Notes under the pieces: model-generated | Databases searched by the model: none | Told to the model about the DNA's origin: nothing | Seen by the model: the letters and a program-made list of their open reading frames with translations, nothing else | Translations under genes and position numbers: made by a program | In this document: one piece after another, positions 5,377 to 41,085 of the stretch | Layout of the letters: every line of letters begins with the position of its first letter | Numbering within the stretch: the stretch's first letter is position 1 | Assembly: GCF_003583365.1 (NCBI RefSeq) | Contig: NZ_QXED01000005.1 | Coordinates: 310,001-374,000, forward strand | Length of the DNA: 64,000 bases | Direction of reading: 5' to 3' | DNA from: Fibrisoma montanum | GTDB lineage: Bacteria > Bacteroidota > Bacteroidia > Cytophagales > Spirosomataceae

Positions 5377-8064
5377 TTACTCACTCCGTAACGACTTCAC
5401 CGGGTTCATCAAAGCCGCTTTGATGCTTTGGAAACTGACCGTTAGCAGGGAAATGCCAGCGGCTAACAAGCCGGCCAGCGCAAAGACCCACCACTCGATA
5501 TCAATCTTATAGGCGAAGTTTTGCAGCCATTGGTGCATGCCCCACCAGGCCATTGGCGAGGCTATGACGATAGCCACCAGGATCAGCTTTAGAAAGTCTC
5601 CGGAAAGCAGTACGACGAGGTTCGTCACACTGGCACCCATTACTTTCCGGATGCCAATCTCTTTCGTCCGTTGCTCGGCGGTGAACGCAGCCAGTCCAAA
5701 CAGGCCAAGACAGGCAATCAGAATAGCCAACCCGGCAAATATCAGGACAACCCGGGCGGTACGCTGCTCACTCCGGTACAGATTGTTTAAATACTGATCG
5801 AGGAAAACGTACTCAAAAGCGGCATCGGGCAGGTTTTTCTGGTAGGCTGCCTGCAACTGCCGCATCGTTTCCGGCAGATTACGGGTTTGGGTACGCACCA
5901 GCAGAAACGTACGGTTTTCCGTATTGGCGTTGTGAAAGCCGTACGCGCCGATGGGCTGGTGCAGCGACTGGAAATGAAAGTCGTCCACTACGCCTACAAT
6001 TTCGGCATTGTTATCAAACACACCCGGCGCTTTTTTGCCAATGGCCTGTTCGGGAGTGTAGCCTAAGAAATCAACCGCCGTTTTGTTCAACACGATTTGA
6101 ACCGTCGTGTCGCTTTCGTTGTCAGTGTCGAGTTTATCCGACTTAGCCGCAGGCAATGTTGTACCCGCCAGCAGTTTAAGGCCCAGAACTTTGATGAAGT
6201 CAGAGGTAACCCGGTTCGTTGTGATATACGTAGAGGCTTTGTCGTCGAGGGGTTTGTTGAGTGAACGCCCGCTTCCTGTCTTGCCCGGATACGTCTGCGC
6301 CCGGCACACTTCGTCGATGCTGCTCAACGACCGAAAATCGTTTGTCAAGGATTCCATGTGCTCTTTGGAGGGTACGGCTGCCGTTGACACCGCTACTACC
6401 TGAGTAGGTTCGTAACCCAGTTTTCGCTGCTGGATGTACTGTAGCTGCCGATAGAACAGGAACGTACTGATGATCAAAATAAGCGAAGCCGTGAACTGAG
6501 CCACCACCAGCGACCGTCTGAGCCAACCCGCACCTGTAGACGAACGGTAGCTGGGGTTCATCAGGTGTTTGGCCGAAAATCGCGACAAGTGCAAAGCGGG
6601 GTACAGGCCGGGTAGTAAAATAACGAGCAATCCCAGGACCAGCAGATTGCCTAGCATGTCGGGGGTAAGCAGCGAGCCAAGCGTAAGCTGTTTTTCGGCC
6701 AGATCATTGAAGAAAGGCAGGCTGATAACCACTAACCCGATTCCGAGCAGCAGGGACCCGGTCACAACCAGTGTTGTTTCCGTGTAAAAACGCCCGATTA
6801 GTTGCGTACGGGTAGCACCAACGGCCTTATTGATGCCTACCTCCCGACTCCGTACCTGTGATTGAGCAGTGGCCAGATTCATGTAATTAATTCCGGCGAT
6901 AACCAAAATCACAATGGCCAGTATGAGGAGAATGTTCACCTGGCTTTGGTCGCCCACCCGGTCCGTACTGGTGTTCGTGAAGCCGGGTGAGTGCAGATGT
7001 ACGTCCGTTAATGGCTGCAGACCGAGGGTGTAGAAGCGATCGCCCGGTTTGACGTTCCTTTCAAGGATTGCATTCATCTGCCCGGCGAGTCGGGTCAGGT
7101 CCGTTTCCGGCCGGACCAGCAGATACGTTTCAAAACTGGCATTGCTCCAGCTCTGGTTTGTTGGGTTACTGGCCCATTTGACGCTGGCCCACGAACCGAT
7201 AAGGTCAGCATCGAGTGTAGCGGTGGCGGGCAGATCGGCGTAGACGCCGGTTACTTCCAGTTTTTGTTGCCCATCCACGTTCAGCACATTGCCAAGCGGG
7301 TTAGCGGTGCCAAAGTACCGCCGGGCGGTCGATTGGCTCAGAATCACCCGGTCAGGTCCAGCCAACGCTGTGTTTGGATTACCCACGAGCAGCGGAATAT
7401 CAAACACCTTGAACAAGGTGCTATCGGCCCAGTATAACCGGGTCTCGGCAAATTTGCTGGCGAAGCCGATGGCGTTTACGAAGGCCGTCTGTCCGTAGTT
7501 GTGGCGTAGAAAGCGCACCTGCTCCTCGATACCGGGTAACTGAGCCTTCATGGTTGGGCCGACGATATTAGGCGCGTTGCCCCAGTGCATGGTTTCCCCG
7601 TCGAAAGAGGCCGTAAGCGTTATCCGGGCAATTCGGTCGGCGTTGGTGTAGTGCCGATCAAAGGCTCTTTCGTCGCGGACGTAAAGCAGAAGCAACAGAG
7701 CCACAGACAAACCAATGGCCAGCCCGGCACTGTTGAGGAGCGTAAAAAGACGATTTTTCCAGAGGCTTCTCCAGGCGATTTTTAGATAATTACGAATCAT
7801 AGCGGGACTGAGTAAATGAGGTGAGGAATATTCGTTTGGTTGACGCTTCATGACATAAGGCCTGACAAAGCCCAGCACCTCGCGCCAGTAGTGCCACCTG
7901 GCCCGGCGCTCACCCACGCGCCCGACCTGGTAGGCAAACTCCTCGTGCAGGTCGCCCTGCAGGGTTTCCAGCCGATGCGGAGCCACGAACCATTCCAGCA
8001 GGCGGTCGGCGGTGCGCGGAGGGGTAGGGCGGTCCGGCGATCCGGCAGGGGGCTTGGGGGTCAT
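5377..8064 (-). CDS. FtsX/MacB-type permease with prefix domain (array 1)
   Basis: 895 residues with the same plan: prefix domain 1-75, internal Met before RNYLKIAWRSLWKNRLF, TM1, MacB-like periplasmic domain, three TM helices after SREVGINKAVGA, second half ending EQRTKEIGIRKVMGAS and the tail MNPVKSLRSE. The first and last ~80 codons are very close to those of the neighbours, while the periplasmic domains differ strongly. Likely a non-transporting or mechanotransmitting type VII-like permease in the inner membrane; the substrate is unknown. No ATPase partner is adjacent. Confidence 0.9.
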   Translation of the reverse strand: MTPKPPAGSPDRPTPPRTADRLLEWFVAPHRLETLQGDLHEEFAYQVGRVGERRARWHYWREVLGFVRPYVMKRQPNEYSSPHLLSPAMIRNYLKIAWRSLWKNRLFTLLNSAGLAIGLSVALLLLLYVRDERAFDRHYTNADRIARITLTASFDGETMHWGNAPNIVGPTMKAQLPGIEEQVRFLRHNYGQTAFVNAIGFASKFAETRLYWADSTLFKVFDIPLLVGNPNTALAGPDRVILSQSTARRYFGTANPLGNVLNVDGQQKLEVTGVYADLPATATLDADLIGSWASVKWASNPTNQSWSNASFETYLLVRPETDLTRLAGQMNAILERNVKPGDRFYTLGLQPLTDVHLHSPGFTNTSTDRVGDQSQVNILLILAIVILVIAGINYMNLATAQSQVRSREVGINKAVGATRTQLIGRFYTETTLVVTGSLLLGIGLVVISLPFFNDLAEKQLTLGSLLTPDMLGNLLVLGLLVILLPGLYPALHLSRFSAKHLMNPSYRSSTGAGWLRRSLVVAQFTASLILIISTFLFYRQLQYIQQRKLGYEPTQVVAVSTAAVPSKEHMESLTNDFRSLSSIDEVCRAQTYPGKTGSGRSLNKPLDDKASTYITTNRVTSDFIKVLGLKLLAGTTLPAAKSDKLDTDNESDTTVQIVLNKTAVDFLGYTPEQAIGKKAPGVFDNNAEIVGVVDDFHFQSLHQPIGAYGFHNANTENRTFLLVRTQTRNLPETMRQLQAAYQKNLPDAAFEYVFLDQYLNNLYRSEQRTARVVLIFAGLAILIACLGLFGLAAFTAEQRTKEIGIRKVMGASVTNLVVLLSGDFLKLILVAIVIASPMAWWGMHQWLQNFAYKIDIEWWVFALAGLLAAGISLLTVSFQSIKAALMNPVKSLRSE

Positions 8065-34103: not shown

Positions 34104-34195
34104 AGGTTTAAAAATTGGTTTAAATAGGCTGAATTGTATACCTAATCTTGACATTACAAATTAGGTATACAATTAGGTATACAATTAGGTATACA
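34104..34195. repeat. 12-bp iterons (3 direct, 1 inverted) plus TTTAAA doublet
   Basis: ATTAGGTATACA occurs three times back to back at 34160-34171, 34172-34183 and 34184-34195. The complement TGTATACCTAAT stands at 34135-34146. A pair of TTTAAA motifs lies at 34104-34127. The block sits upstream of the PH-domain gene and may bind a repressor or the transposase. Confidence 0.85.
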
Positions 34196-34207
34196 CCTGA
34201 AATTAGA

Positions 34208-35182: not shown

Positions 35183-35368
35183 ATGAAGACAGTACAGGAA
35201 GTCAAATCCTATTTACGAAACGGCGACATGACGAAGATCGCTAAGATGGCCGGTGTAACCCGTAAACATGCCGATGTGATACTTCGTCGTCCGACCTCAA
35301 AGCGGTTTGAGATTGTCTTCAAAGCCGCCAAAAAAATCGCGTCAGCTAATCAGCGCCTGGGTATATGA
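35183..35368 (+). CDS. Small HTH protein (Ner-like position)
   Basis: 61 residues, basic, with a helix-turn-helix-like segment (MTKIAKMAGVTRKHADVILR). The place, first early gene divergent from the repressor, is that of Ner in Mu, which limits early transcription. Sequence similarity to Ner itself is not evident. The stop codon overlaps the transposase start by 4 bp (ATGA). Confidence 0.65.
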   Translation: MKTVQEVKSYLRNGDMTKIAKMAGVTRKHADVILRRPTSKRFEIVFKAAKKIASANQRLGI

Positions 35369-37485
35369 AGAAGGTCGCCGACATATGGTATTGCAGCTTT
35401 AACGAGGTAGTTAACTGCTGTGGTATTAAGGAAGTTACGGTTAAGATGGGTTGCCTTCGCGGTTCGTCGTACTGGCAAACTATCCCTGATCCTGACGACC
35501 GTCGTCGGCGGCTGATCCGGTATGATACGCTGGCTGTAAAGTATCGGCGAATGGTTGAATCGGCCCTGTGTGGTGGCCTGACTCCAGACGTTTGGTTCTC
35601 GGAAGCGAGACGCAAAGTTTTGAGCGAACGGTCATTGCCTGAACTACTTGAAATCGCCCTCCAAACAGATTGGAGACGTTACGTAGGGTTGTATAAGATC
35701 ACCGACCGAAACGAACGTAGTACAGAGAAGCGGGTACGCTCCCTGGCTATGGCGGCTGCTGTGATCGAAACACTAGGCAACTACATCCAGGATCACGACA
35801 TCGACCCACGGAGCTACGTACCCTACCGGGAAGCTCTTGCCTGGTTGGGCGACCACTGGGTCTACTACAGCGCCTATAAGGACGTACCGACCAATGAAGT
35901 ACGCCTAAAGGAGAAGGTGAACCAACGCTTCGTAGATCGGCTGCCGATTCAGGAAGTGGTCAAGTTACCCAGGCAGGGCAACCGGAGCCGGGAACAGTTC
36001 GCCAACGATCCCGAACTCATGGCCTGGATTGCGATGGCCAGAAGCCAGGGCACCAACGACCCGAACGCTTACATTATTCGCAAGATCAGCGAGGTATGCC
36101 GGATCGTAGGGCGCGAAGTGCCTTCTAATAGCTGGTTTTCGCAAGTGCTGGCCAGTCCGAAGATGAAGCAACTCACGGCGAACGGTCGGTTTGGCGCTGG
36201 TACCAAGTACGCCGGTCGCTACACCCATTCAATCACGATGGCCAGGGCGATGTACGCGGGCGATTGCTGGATGATGGACGCGACGCGGGTCAATATGGTC
36301 GAACACCAGACCCAGGAGAAGGGAAAACAGGCGTTTTTGTTCGTAATCGCCATTCGGGACGCTTATTCGGGCGACATCGTAGGGTGCCACTTCGATACGA
36401 AGGAAGACCGCTGGGGTTACACAAATGCCTTAAAAATGGCGGTCAAAGTGACCGGCTACCTACCCCATACGCTCGTTTATGACCGTTTTCCGGGTCATAT
36501 CAGCGACGAAATGCAGTCGATTCTAGGGTCGATGGAAGCCAAAGGGGTTCAACTGGTATGCACCCACAAGGCGACCGGAAAAGCCTTACTGGAACGGTGG
36601 TTCGATACGCTCCAGACGGTGTTTTTCTCGCAGTCGCGGTACTACTACGGGCAAGGGATCATGTCAACCCGGCCGTATGCCCATCGGTCGCCTGACTACC
36701 TGGTCAAACTACGCAAGGAAGCCCGTAATGAAGGCTGGGACTTTGATAAAGCCTGGCAAGAAGCATGGCGACGTATAGAAGAGTACCGTCAGACGCCGGT
36801 CAGCTACTACAGCCGCAAACATGCGAAGCTGGATTTAAGCCCTTCGACACTACACGAACAGAGCGAAAAGCCGAACGTGATCCGGGTGGAGGTATGGGAA
36901 CAGGCGTCGCTTTTCTGGATGACCAAAATTCTGGACATCCGACGCAACCGGATCGAACAGGAGGTCCACGGCGTCCGCTACGAATACCTGATCTACGACA
37001 CGCAGATCATGTACCGATACAGCCGGGTAGCGGTTCGCTACGAAGAAAGCGACCCAAGCAAGGTAATGCTGTTTGCGGTCGGCGCTGACGACCGGGTGAG
37101 CGACTTCTTTATCGCTGAACTGACTCATGCCAAGCCGATTCCGATGTATGGTCCTGACGCTGATCCGGGCCGGTTGGCCGGTCGTCAGGCGAAGATCGAC
37201 AAGTTCGAGCAACAGAAGCGGGCTGATCTGGAGGAACTGACCAGCGGGGCGACGGTCGATCCGGAATACCTGCTGACGCTGGGCGGTCGGGTGTCGAAAG
37301 ACGAGTACGAATCAGTCGCTACGGCGGTGATCTACGAACAGATGGGGGTGTCGATTCAGGCAGACGCGCAGACGCCCGCCAAACAGAAACGAACGAAGCC
37401 AGCGCCCCCGATTCTTCCCGACGCTGACGAGGTATTCGACCCGAAAGACTTTGTGAATCAATCTTTTTTCAACAATAACCCCTAA
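35365..37485 (+). CDS. Mu-type DDE transposase (MuA-like)
   Basis: 706 residues. The N-terminal ~250 residues are DNA-binding (HTH segments, basic RRRRLIRYDT). The RNase H-like catalytic core carries Asp305 (GDCWMMDATR), Asp373 (LVYDRFPGH) and Glu410 (GKALLERWFDT), a plausible complete DDE triad. A Mu C-terminal-like beta domain follows (YEYLIYDTQIMYRYSRV), then an acidic/Pro-rich tail that may contact the MuB-like ATPase. It joins phage ends to target DNA in integration and replicative transposition. A little longer than MuA (663 residues). Confidence 0.92.
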   Translation: MKKVADIWYCSFNEVVNCCGIKEVTVKMGCLRGSSYWQTIPDPDDRRRRLIRYDTLAVKYRRMVESALCGGLTPDVWFSEARRKVLSERSLPELLEIALQTDWRRYVGLYKITDRNERSTEKRVRSLAMAAAVIETLGNYIQDHDIDPRSYVPYREALAWLGDHWVYYSAYKDVPTNEVRLKEKVNQRFVDRLPIQEVVKLPRQGNRSREQFANDPELMAWIAMARSQGTNDPNAYIIRKISEVCRIVGREVPSNSWFSQVLASPKMKQLTANGRFGAGTKYAGRYTHSITMARAMYAGDCWMMDATRVNMVEHQTQEKGKQAFLFVIAIRDAYSGDIVGCHFDTKEDRWGYTNALKMAVKVTGYLPHTLVYDRFPGHISDEMQSILGSMEAKGVQLVCTHKATGKALLERWFDTLQTVFFSQSRYYYGQGIMSTRPYAHRSPDYLVKLRKEARNEGWDFDKAWQEAWRRIEEYRQTPVSYYSRKHAKLDLSPSTLHEQSEKPNVIRVEVWEQASLFWMTKILDIRRNRIEQEVHGVRYEYLIYDTQIMYRYSRVAVRYEESDPSKVMLFAVGADDRVSDFFIAELTHAKPIPMYGPDADPGRLAGRQAKIDKFEQQKRADLEELTSGATVDPEYLLTLGGRVSKDEYESVATAVIYEQMGVSIQADAQTPAKQKRTKPAPPILPDADEVFDPKDFVNQSFFNNNP

Positions 37486-37800: not shown

Positions 37801-38793
37801 ATGATTACAGACCTTCAAAAAAGCGAAATCGGGCGGTTGCTGGAGATTGAATCCGGACGCCTGGGCGGTTGGCGGCAAGTGGCCAACAAACTGGGCGTTA
37901 ACCAGGTGACGATCCGGTACAACATGGTCGAACGTGAGAAGTGGCACCTGGTATCAGATCAAATGTGGGCGCGGGTAGCTCATAAGCTGGGCTATAAGCT
38001 CAATGAAGAACGCTGGAACTGGGTATCGACCACGAACACGAACGTAATGTTCGAGCTACTGGAGCGGGCACAATTTGAAAGCCTGTTTACCTGCATTAGC
38101 CACGATGCCGGGCATGGTAAAACGACCGGGGCGCTGATGTACACGTTGCAAAAGGAAGCGGTTTTCTATCTGGAGTGTGAAGAGAGCTGGAGCCATAAGC
38201 GGTTCGTGCAAAAGATCGCCGAAACGCTGGGTGTTCGGACGGAACGCTACAACGTATCGGATTTGACTGATCTGATCGTGTCGGTCCTGAAGCAACGGGC
38301 AGCCACGGCCCGGCCCCTGCTGATTATCGATGAAGCCAATAAGCTGAAACCGTCGTCGCTACGTCTGTTCATTCCCCTGTACAACAAGCTACATGATGAG
38401 GTTGGTATGGTGCTGATCGGGGCGCATGACCTGAAGCGACATATACAGGCAGGCGTTCGCCGGGATGCGCGGGGCTTCGATGAATTGGAAAGTCGATTAG
38501 GACGCGCTTACATGCCCTTAGTTGGCATTTTCCGTCAGGATGTTGTTGCGATCTGCAATGCCAACGGCCTGAAGAATCCGGACGCCCAGGAGCGGGTTTG
38601 GCTGCATCTGAATCCACGTAAGGAGTCGATTCGGGGTAAGTACGTCTGGGTTGCAGATCGTGACTATCGGGTACTGCAACAGGCCATCAAACACGAGCGT
38701 GTACGGGCGCAAGAGAAGGCGACAAAAAAGGAGCTGGCCCCTACGGAGATGGAAGCGGATATGGGTGGGCGGGTTGTCGCTCTGAGCGCGTAA
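37801..38793 (+). CDS. AAA ATPase transposition protein (MuB-like)
   Basis: 330 residues. An N-terminal HTH domain (GGWRQVANKLGVNQVTIRYN) is followed by an AAA/AAA-22-type ATPase: Walker A HDAGHGKTTG (101-110), Walker B PLLIIDEAN (Asp177-Glu178) and sensor segment VLIGAHDL. MuB-type proteins coat target DNA, activate the transposase and give target immunity. Placement two genes after the transposase agrees. The C-terminal ~60 residues are basic, as expected for DNA binding. Confidence 0.9.
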   Translation: MITDLQKSEIGRLLEIESGRLGGWRQVANKLGVNQVTIRYNMVEREKWHLVSDQMWARVAHKLGYKLNEERWNWVSTTNTNVMFELLERAQFESLFTCISHDAGHGKTTGALMYTLQKEAVFYLECEESWSHKRFVQKIAETLGVRTERYNVSDLTDLIVSVLKQRAATARPLLIIDEANKLKPSSLRLFIPLYNKLHDEVGMVLIGAHDLKRHIQAGVRRDARGFDELESRLGRAYMPLVGIFRQDVVAICNANGLKNPDAQERVWLHLNPRKESIRGKYVWVADRDYRVLQQAIKHERVRAQEKATKKELAPTEMEADMGGRVVALSA

Positions 38794-39897: not shown

Positions 39898-40151
39898 GTA
39901 CGATCACGCGGCAACGCCTGGCCGAACTGACCGACGACGATCTACGCGATCTGACCGACTTCGTGGAACGGGCGATTACGGAAAAGGATCGCTTTGACCG
40001 GAACGTCATGCGGACGCTGGTCTGTGACATCCTGGGGGTATGTCTGGGTAAACCGGACTGGGATGTACTGCCGATCCTGCTGATTAACGAGACCCGACGA
40101 CGCGCTGAAAAGAAGGCTATCGAAATCCAATTCAATCTCTGTCTGAACTGA
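39894..40151 (+). CDS. Hypothetical early phage protein
   Basis: 85 residues, mainly helical and charged (ELTDDDLRDLTDFVERAITE), with a C-terminal helix rich in Arg/Lys/Glu. Overlaps its neighbours by 4 bp upstream and 1 bp downstream. No family recognised. Confidence 0.6.
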   Translation: MSTITRQRLAELTDDDLRDLTDFVERAITEKDRFDRNVMRTLVCDILGVCLGKPDWDVLPILLINETRRRAEKKAIEIQFNLCLN

Positions 40152-40438
40152 TGAACCAACACCAAGCAAGTGTATATGCCAAGCTGGACGCCCTGACGAC
40201 CTACGAAGTACGAGCTATGTACTACCTGGTGCGGGCGATGGACGAAGCAGACGCCTATCGAAGCCTTCGGGTACTGACCGCGATAGAAGGGTTAGTTGGT
40301 AAGCTGACTAATGATGAAGCGTTTGCCTTACCGCCTGCTTTGATGCAGGTGATCGCTGAAAAAGACCCGGACATCGTAGCCAGGCAAGCGATCAAGGAAG
40401 CCTACCAATTCGAGCAAAACACTGACGGACGAGTGTAA
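40151..40438 (+). CDS. Hypothetical early phage protein
   Basis: 95 residues, helical (YEVRAMYYLVRAMDEADAYR). No family recognised. It ends 7 bp before a tRNA-like element. Confidence 0.6.
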   Translation: MNQHQASVYAKLDALTTYEVRAMYYLVRAMDEADAYRSLRVLTAIEGLVGKLTNDEAFALPPALMQVIAEKDPDIVARQAIKEAYQFEQNTDGRV

Positions 40439-40445
40439 CAGTCCT

Positions 40446-40546
40446 GGGACGGTGGTGCAAGGGTAGCATAGCTGGGCGGTCTTCTCCAATTAAGGGGTTA
40501 GTTGGTTGCCGCTCCAGTGATCCGGGTTCGACCCCTGGCCGTCTCG
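40446..40546 (+). ncRNA. tRNA-like cloverleaf with an extended, non-standard anticodon arm
   Basis: Acceptor stem 40446-40452 with 40539-40545 (7 bp, one G-U), U8/G9, D-stem 40455-40458 with 40466-40469 around a loop with GGG, and a canonical T arm 40522-40538 with loop TTCGACC. The variable region is 3 nt. Instead of a 7-nt anticodon loop, stem 40471-40475/40514-40518 continues into GCGG/CCGC (40476-40479/40509-40512), an internal loop, and an 8-bp stem CCAATTAA/TTAGTTGG (40486-40493/40498-40505) closed by GGGG. CTCCAA (40484-40489) equals the core of a Trp anticodon loop. No CCA is encoded (CAA follows). It fills a 148-bp gap between early phage genes. Confidence 0.75.
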
Positions 40547-40586
40547 CAATGGCAATACTGCCAGATACTCAAATCCTTTTACAATC

Positions 40587-40829
40587 ATGGCCAAACAACA
40601 GGCTACCAACGCCAAGCCGACATCGGTAAAGGCAAAATTTCAATGTACCCGGGTTGCGGACGATCCGGAGCGGGCTTTCTTCAAGACCATCGACGGGCCG
40701 GATGCGTCAGGCAATAACGACAATCAGGTGCTTGGCGGGGCCGAACTGATGATCTCGAAAGACGACACGGCTGGGTTCTTCGCGGCCGGTGGTGAATACA
40801 TGTTCGAGATCACTCCAGTAGGAAAGTAA
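40587..40829 (+). CDS. Hypothetical early phage protein
   Basis: 80 residues; small beta-rich protein (VKAKFQCTRVADD, GGEYMFEITPVGK), possibly an OB-like or nucleic-acid-binding fold. No family recognised. Its TAA shares its last base with the next ATG (TAATG). Confidence 0.6.
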   Translation: MAKQQATNAKPTSVKAKFQCTRVADDPERAFFKTIDGPDASGNNDNQVLGGAELMISKDDTAGFFAAGGEYMFEITPVGK

Positions 40830-41041: not shown

Positions 41042-41085
41042 CGGCCGGTTGACGGAAGAAAGTTTCGAGATCCGTCAGCCGGCCG
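41042..41085. other. Long GC-rich hairpin before a small gene
   Basis: CGGCCGGTTGACGGA (41042-41056) pairs with TCCGTCAGCCGGCCG (41071-41085): 15 pairs including one G-U, around a 14-nt loop. There is no U-run after it. It ends 3 bp before ATG 41089 and would block that start unless unfolded, so it may control translation or process the early mRNA. Confidence 0.75.

What the first reader, a model, noticed from the sequence alone, without database searches (positions are those of the whole stretch)
40446..40546. Phage tRNA-like RNA with the anticodon loop replaced by a long hairpin
Acceptor, D and T arms fit a tRNA (T loop TTCGACC, acceptor 7 bp). The anticodon stem continues as GCGG/CCGC and then an 8-bp stem with a GGGG loop, so no 7-nt anticodon loop exists. 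The T arm and acceptor pair so well that chance is unlikely, and it exactly fills an intergenic gap of early genes. CTCCAA inside the insert equals the core of a Trp anticodon loop, suggesting descent from tRNA-Trp. It could be a decoy for a host tRNA nuclease or tRNA-modifying defence, a substrate for an RNA ligase or intron removal, or a regulatory mimic.
Basis: partly seen in the sequence, partly recalled or inferred. Interest (0 to 1): 0.85.

Follow-up and report, generated by a model that had tools for sequence, protein, structure and literature searches.

The report
tRNA mimic between two phage genes
A prophage carries a tRNA-shaped RNA with no usable anticodon between two of its genes, and many other phages carry similar or stripped-down tRNA mimics in the same kind of place, probably so that the cell's own tRNA-cutting enzymes chop the long phage message into single-gene pieces.

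Summary
Window 40446-40546 folds as a tRNA (acceptor 7/7, D 4/4, anticodon stem 5/5, T arm 5/5) with a 38-nt structured insert instead of the anticodon loop. It is the only such hit in the window; 60 Markov-resampled windows gave one hit in all.

It is not a lone oddity. Seven distinct spacers before homologues of the same small gene hold tRNA-like bodies of differing kinds, or a bare acceptor + T-arm minihelix, each followed by C-A-A and a short hairpin. The minihelix belongs to a large phage family: 90 distinct copies in 2.1 Mb of fetched loci, none in reversed controls. It has a covarying 2-bp mini D-stem and often a tail hairpin of changing sequence. In the isolated Gordonia phage VanLee, 15 of 17 long spacers of one operon carry it (controls 2 of 1700).

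Best explanation: cis-acting tRNA mimics that punctuate polycistronic phage mRNA, probably cut by RNase P and/or RNase Z. No cleavage was measured. Decoy, intron and Trp-descent ideas are not supported. Ten searches of an open-access library found no description.

The parts
40446..40546 (+). tRNA-like RNA, acceptor base 1 to discriminator
40455..40469 (+). D arm (GTGC/GCAT, loop with GG)
40471..40518 (+). anticodon stem GCTGG/CCAGT enclosing the insert
40476..40513 (+). 38-nt structured insert in place of the anticodon loop
   Evidence: no relative with the same insert found
40522..40538 (+). T arm with loop TTCGACC
   Evidence: energy folding prefers a shifted hairpin
40547..40549 (+). C-A-A after the discriminator (place of CCA)
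40550..40563 (+). tail hairpin TGGCA-ATAC-TGCCA
40151..40438 (+). upstream gene (95 aa), stop codon 7 nt before the RNA
   Evidence: no family in Pfam or PHROGs up to E 0.1
40587..40829 (+). downstream gene g9 (80 aa), start 40 nt after the RNA; homologues follow the same kind of element
35365..37485 (+). Mu-like transposase (phrog_310)
37801..38793 (+). transposition ATPase (phrog_296)

Best explanation
It is a cis-acting tRNA mimic in the spacer of a polycistronic phage mRNA. The fold presents the tRNA top half (acceptor/T-stem helix, D-loop GG against the T loop) to the host's tRNA-maturation enzymes: RNase P cutting before base 1 and/or RNase Z cutting after the discriminator. This separates upstream and downstream mRNA; the downstream one would begin 5'-CAAUGGCA..UGCCA, with a hairpin beside its new end. 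Decoding plays no part, so the anticodon domain is free to decay, grow (38 nt here, more in L025) or vanish (minihelix forms). SHOWN: the structure, its conservation as structure, sense orientation, the place between stop and start codon, repeated copies per phage, and interchange of full and mini forms before the same gene. INFERRED: co-transcription, cleavage, which enzyme, and the role of the tail hairpin.
For: Full and mini forms occupy the orthologous spacer before g9. Acceptor pairing was not in the search pattern, yet 63 of 89 distinct hits pair 7/7 against 3.6 expected, max 8. 90 distinct copies, 0 in reversed controls. Mini D-stem around UGG/CGG: both pairs in 65 of 74, shuffled mean 20.6, max 33 of 1000. 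Upstream stop codon ends on acceptor bases 1-4 in 37 of 80, random places 6 of 154; next start at a median of 30 nt in 83 of 90. Tail hairpin in 35 of 85, shuffled mean 1.6, max 6 of 200. VanLee: 15 of 17 long spacers, controls 2 of 1700, 0 of 17 on the opposite strand; Morgana 6 of 7. RNase P cuts model substrates made of acceptor, T stem and T loop, measures 12 bp from the T loop, and cuts phage M3 and C4 RNAs and some mRNAs (PMC11143913 passages); RNase P and Z free mRNAs at tRNAs in mitochondria (PMC4394434 passages).
Against: No RNA data. In many minis the acceptor holds the last bases of the upstream stop codon (U|AA in 29 of 80), so a 5' cut would break it. Mini helices are 13 bp, not 12, and have CWA rather than CCA, which should weaken RNase P binding. 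50 of 85 minis have no tail hairpin by my rule. The mini model R1 does not match the window element itself up to E = 5, and no second copy was seen in the window. Four of 11 loci chosen by the g9 protein have no element before g9 and one has only a plain hairpin. Phages GMA2 and EagleEye gave none or only a T-arm piece.
Confidence: 0.62

Rival explanations
1. Translation element: the tRNA-like fold beside a stop codon helps the terminating ribosome to leave or to restart at the next gene, or aids initiation there, without any cut.
For: It lies between stop and start; the stop codon is built into the acceptor of many minis (37 of 80) and the next start is near.
Against: The kept features (D-loop GG, T loop, long acceptor/T helix, C74) are those read by tRNA-processing enzymes (PMC11143913 passages), and copies stand before many different genes. 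In VanLee and Morgana the spacers also hold a Shine-Dalgarno-like stretch.
Confidence: 0.14
2. 3'-end device: only the 3' side is cut (RNase Z), leaving the upstream mRNA with a tRNA-like, perhaps CCA-tailed, protective end.
For: Explains the stop codon inside the acceptor and the absence of CCA in the DNA.
Against: In VanLee the copies start after an intact stop codon, leaving room for a 5' cut.
Confidence: 0.12
3. Trans-acting decoy or sponge for a tRNA-targeting host defence or for a tRNA-modifying enzyme.
For: tRNA shape in a phage; a decoy of the elbow or acceptor would not need an anticodon.
Against: Fixed cis layout, sense orientation, many copies per operon, fusion with stop codons, tail hairpins. 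No anticodon loop is left for anticodon nucleases in the window or the minis.
Confidence: 0.06
4. Decayed captured tRNA, attachment site, or intron-containing tRNA without present function as a mimic.
For: Window and L024 look like tRNAs with an insert; a halovirus tRNA-like gene is proposed as attP (PMC8707807 passages); L104 holds a normal-looking tRNA-Gln with the same kind of tail.
Against: Paired changes in D and tail stems; several copies per phage, mostly with different letters; minis have nothing to splice. That a Mu-like phage needs no tRNA attachment site is recalled.
Confidence: 0.04

Closest known systems
tRNA punctuation of mitochondrial transcripts (model of Ojala 1981, as cited in PMC4394434, passages read)
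   Same: tRNA folds between genes of a polycistronic message; compact spacing; stop codons that run into the tRNA are recalled for mitochondria.
   Different: Mitochondria use real, decoding tRNAs; here the anticodon domain is changed or missing, the genomes are phages, and cleavage is not shown.
Phage RNAs cut by RNase P (M3 RNA, C4 antisense RNA) and RNase P cuts in operon mRNAs (PMC11143913, passages)
   Same: Phage or mRNA substrates for the tRNA 5'-processing enzyme.
   Different: Single cases; no repeated tRNA mimic per gene spacer is described in the passages I saw.
SAS/ESAS repeats of cluster K mycobacteriophages (PMC3203893, passages) and repeated intergenic regions of Gordonia phage CaiB (PMC9302106, first of two parts shown)
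   Same: Repeated elements in front of many phage genes, some with inverted repeats.
   Different: Described as sequence motifs near start codons, not as tRNA-like folds; I did not fold them here.
Viral tRNA-like structures (review PMC5723415, passages) and tmRNA
   Same: tRNA top half without a normal anticodon arm.
   Different: The known cases in the passages are RNA viruses and cellular mRNAs. Here elements lie inside DNA-phage operons; the only Rfam tmRNA match was a 17-nt T-arm piece, 13.4 bits against a cut-off of 47.

Membership tests
canonical tRNA | acceptor, D and T arms with TTCRA T loop and GG in the D loop | tested here: met
canonical tRNA | 7-nt anticodon loop with an anticodon | tested here: not met
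   38 nt between the stem halves; ARAGORN none
canonical tRNA | recognised by the Rfam tRNA model | tested here: not met
   no match up to E = 5
tRNA punctuation of polycistronic mRNA | tRNA fold between genes, sense strand | tested here: met
tRNA punctuation of polycistronic mRNA | cleavage by RNase P and RNase Z at the fold | not testable with these tools
   no RNA data available
tRNA punctuation of polycistronic mRNA | the marks are working tRNAs | tested here: not met
   window and minis have no anticodon loop; a few relatives (L104, L064) pass ARAGORN
intron-containing tRNA | insert is a known self-splicing intron | tested here: not met
   Rfam no match; an unknown intron type cannot be excluded
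phage mini-tRNA family (model R1, this work) | 47-position minihelix model matches | tested here: not met
   window element not found up to E = 5; linked instead by shared spacer, gene g9 and tail
tmRNA | tag reading frame and full model match | tested here: not met
   ARAGORN none in the window; no Rfam match
SAS/ESAS repeats | 13-bp GGGATAGGAGCCC before start codons with 17-bp inverted repeats | not tested
   feature taken from passages of PMC3203893

The most novel reading that the evidence does not exclude
Double-stranded DNA phages of more than one host phylum (Bacteroidota prophages, Gordonia phages) use an unrecognised punctuation code: anticodon-free tRNA mimics, from full tRNA bodies down to a 44-nt minihelix with a 2-bp D stem, repeated from spacer to spacer. 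They hand the phage's long transcripts to the host's tRNA-maturation enzymes and give each downstream mRNA its own start, often with a hairpin; in many minis even the upstream stop codon is built into the acceptor stem.
Probability: 0.55. Interest if true: 0.92.

Novelty: new variant of a known kind. Interest (0 to 1): 0.86.

Why it matters
If right, phages have a parallel to mitochondrial tRNA punctuation and make host RNase P and/or RNase Z part of phage gene expression. How phage operons set level and half-life of single genes then becomes testable spacer by spacer. It also offers a natural minimal tRNA (2-bp D stem, UGG triloop) for structural work, and may explain odd tRNA calls and 80-120-nt spacers in annotated phages. 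No Rfam 15 family matched above its cut-off in the stretches scanned.

Tried and rejected
The transposase search of genome contigs found no relative. DNA search of 222 family genomes gave, beside the window itself, only pieces of 18-36 nt. Relatives came from the transposase protein and from gene order. My first idea, that CAATGGCA is a conserved signal or a leaderless start (MA[I/T]xP), was dropped: the string was in my own patterns, and copies found without it carry other hairpins. L100, L102, L103, L107, L109, L111, L114 and L115 have incomplete T stems and look like chance hits; L113 is a host tRNA-Ser whose match is about what chance gives (my estimate); L105 was not shown and not judged. 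Klebsiella phage Miami is an annotated terminator; SPO1 and Littlefix were left open. L096, L232, L239 and L248 were dropped as likely chance before the counts, but are inside the 90; one search also leaves out one copy with under 45 nt of downstream sequence. Alignment A1 holds only copies with perfect 7+6 pairing and an 11-nt linker (56 of 90), so its 99.3% paired cells are by construction; only its D stem is a free test. The T loop and UGG were in the pattern, so their conservation is partly by choice. Many copies come from related phages and are not independent events. Sub-threshold Rfam matches on the minis (tmRNA piece; plastid ycf2 5'UTR on the opposite strand) were taken as chance.

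Full report
WHAT IS THERE. Window 40446-40546 is a tRNA-shaped RNA without an anticodon loop. The stems of the cloverleaf are present, and a 38-nt structured insert stands where the 7-nt loop should be. A scan that requires a T stem of 5/5 with a TTCRA loop, acceptor 7/7, a D stem with GG in its loop and a 5-bp anticodon stem finds this place alone in the window; 60 Markov-resampled windows gave one hit in all. ARAGORN and Rfam do not report it. Minimum-energy folding is not unusual and shifts the T arm, so geometry and relatives carry the argument.

WHERE IT LIES. It sits 7 nt after the stop codon of a 95-aa gene and 40 nt before the start of an 80-aa gene, here called g9, in the early region of a Mu-like prophage: transposase phrog_310 E 1.7e-21, transposition protein phrog_296 E 1.2e-34. 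The host genome, 7.8 Mb, holds one copy. DNA search of 222 genomes of the host family found no other relative by sequence, only pieces of 18-36 nt. The transposase protein matched in 9 of 222 genomes, the window's own included. I fetched seven places in six of the other eight. Two prophages of one genome, G181, hold a tRNA-like element at the same place. L024 has a body with a long variable arm (Leu-like by recalled features), a CAAGT/ACTTG anticodon stem and about 42 nt in between; in L025 the acceptor starts 220 nt before the T loop. The acceptor letters differ in the window, L024 and L025 but pair fully. L026-L030 showed no convincing element.

THE SAME SPACER WITH DIFFERENT tRNA BODIES. 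Pattern scans on the 3' part found more phage contigs. In L064 the spacer before the g9 homologue (33% identity, E 4e-6 to the window's g9 in a single comparison) holds only acceptor, linker and T arm, with the tail CAATGGCAATAATGCCAG. A full body that ARAGORN calls tRNA-Asn, with the same tail, stands before the next gene, and a third, mini copy before a later one. In L099 the g9 homologue (E 6e-9 to that of L025) follows a full body. To avoid my own pattern I then fetched loci by the g9 protein of L099 alone: 11 loci. Six carry a tRNA-like element before the gene (L278, L280, L281, L282, L283, L284). Of these, L280/L281 and L283/L284 are alike there, and L278 and L282 are the contigs of L099 and L064 already known, so L280 and L283 are the new ones. 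One locus has a plain 10-bp hairpin with a similar tail (L279), and four have none (L285-L288). L278 and L280 differ on both sides of a D-stem pair (GCTC/GAGC against GATC/GATC), and L283 has the tail pairs turned round (TGCCA/TGGCA). The fold, not the letters, is kept, and the anticodon domain is the free part.

A LARGE FAMILY OF MINIHELICES. Of 89 distinct hits in those loci, 79 pair at least 6/7 and 63 pair 7/7 in the acceptor; with shuffled upstream letters the means are 31.5 and 3.6, the maxima 47 and 8. A mechanical scanner finds 90 distinct copies in 2.11 Mb of loci (partly overlapping, and mostly fetched for such elements) and none in the same sequence reversed. The usual 11-nt linker begins with a 2-bp stem around UGG or CGG: both pairs stand in 65 of the 74 copies with that motif (of 86 tested), against 20.6 expected and 33 at most in 1000 shuffles, in seven pair combinations. 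In alignment A1 the D pairs hold in 94.6% of cells and both change on both sides. The stop codon of the upstream frame ends on acceptor bases 1-4 in 37 of the 80 copies with an upstream frame of 50 or more codons (random places 6 of 154), 29 times as U|AA or U|AG; a start codon follows at a median of 30 nt in 83 of 90. After the discriminator comes C in 26 of the 29 copies that no pattern selected, then mostly U or A. A hairpin of 5 bp or more starting within 5 nt of the 3' end stands in 35 of 85 copies, shuffled mean 1.6, max 6 of 200, with many different stems. Several contigs hold 3 to 5 copies, mostly with different stems; the three in L150 are the same.

ISOLATED PHAGES. Gordonia phage VanLee (NC_073474.1) shows the pattern best. 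Of the 17 spacers of 60 nt or more between its leftward genes 132-163, 15 carry the element by script (14 with a helix of 12 bp or more), a 16th (29485-29659 of L298) by eye with a T-stem mismatch, and the 17th (37062-37423) does not. Control stretches of the same lengths elsewhere in the genome gave 2 of 1700, the same spacers reversed 0 of 17, the opposite strand 0 of 17. These copies start after an intact stop codon, mostly have A then C after the acceptor, and 9 of the 15 have a tail hairpin of 7 bp or more; then often comes GGCACCCAAC, a Shine-Dalgarno-like stretch and the start codon. In Gordonia phage Morgana 6 of 7 such spacers (genes 144-161) pass by script, the seventh by eye. The VanLee record annotates one tRNA elsewhere and nothing in these spacers. 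In the host phylum of the window, model R1 finds a match in 1 of 395 genomes, which fits a phage element, though R1 covers only the mini form and does not match the window's own element. GMA2 (L304) gave no match and EagleEye (L305) a T-arm piece. Of nine other phage stretches, eight gave only T-arm pieces and L301 none.

HOW IT MAY WORK. What is kept is what tRNA-processing enzymes read: the acceptor/T helix, the T loop, the D-loop GG, C after the discriminator. [quoted passage not shown] it also cuts phage M3 and C4 RNA and some mRNAs (PMC11143913, passages). In mitochondria RNase P and RNase Z free mRNAs at tRNAs (PMC4394434, passages). I therefore think these are punctuation marks. Cut behind the discriminator, the window's downstream mRNA would begin CAAUGGCA..UGCCA, a hairpin next to the end, of the kind that slows 5'-dependent decay (recalled). 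The awkward points are the stop codon built into the acceptor of many minis, their 13-bp helix, and CWA in place of CCA; they could mean a 3' cut only. The range of bodies, from a tRNA-Gln by ARAGORN with the same kind of tail (L104) through bodies with odd anticodon arms to minihelices, suggests repeated capture of tRNAs followed by loss of decoding; this order of events is inference.

WHAT IS KNOWN. Ten searches of an open-access library listed no paper that I could recognise as an account of tRNA mimics in phage gene spacers. The library lacks most subscription papers and holds no bioRxiv preprints, so this is weak evidence of absence. Seen: PMC9302106 (first of two parts, which covers the main text), PMC11143913, PMC3203893, PMC8707807, PMC5723415 and PMC4394434 (passages); others in listings only. 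Repeated elements before phage genes are known (SAS/ESAS, CaiB regions) but are described there as sequence motifs. I call this a new variant of a known kind (tRNA mimicry, tRNA punctuation), with a good chance of being new to phage biology.

Noticed in passing
L024 about 5210-5117 (- strand) and L025 about 6584-6680: Directly upstream of the tRNA-like element both G181 prophages share a block of about 95 nt (GTTTTTGAGCG .. CCAAACTCATGCC .. GGCAAAA) with two inverted repeats; the window lacks it. Rfam shows nothing there.
   Followed up: partly
window 41042-41085: A 15-bp inverted repeat (CGGCCGGTTGACGGA / TCCGTCAGCCGGCCG, letters) lies in the next spacer, two genes after the RNA; by eye the same spacer of L024 and L025 also has inverted repeats of other sequence.
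   Followed up: no
window about 34114-34200: Repeated TTAGGTATACA motifs before the repressor-like gene; L024 has AGGTGTGT repeats in a like place. Possibly phage-end or operator repeats.
   Followed up: no
L292 (Yersinia phage phiR1-RT, HE956709.1): An unannotated tRNA-like stretch lies between a tRNA-Met gene and the next coding gene, just before its ribosome-binding site.
   Followed up: partly
L299 (Gordonia phage Kvothe), L300 (Streptomyces phage Abt2graduatex2), L302 (Cyanophage Cy-LDV1), L294 (Tortoise microvirus 74): Unannotated T-arm-bearing structures in spacers before genes; R1 finds only the T arm. Other kinds of tRNA-like spacer may exist.
   Followed up: partly
L146 11638-11709; L041 9937-10031; L278 2374-2465; L048 6453-6541: ARAGORN calls these elements tRNA-Phe, tRNA-His, tRNA-Arg and tRNA with a 4-base anticodon; the first overlaps a minihelix, so routine annotation may hide the family.
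   Followed up: partly
L279 just upstream of 2501: A 10-bp hairpin without a T loop, followed by TCCA and ATGGCATAAGCCA, stands where relatives have the tRNA-like element: perhaps a step towards a plain hairpin.
   Followed up: no
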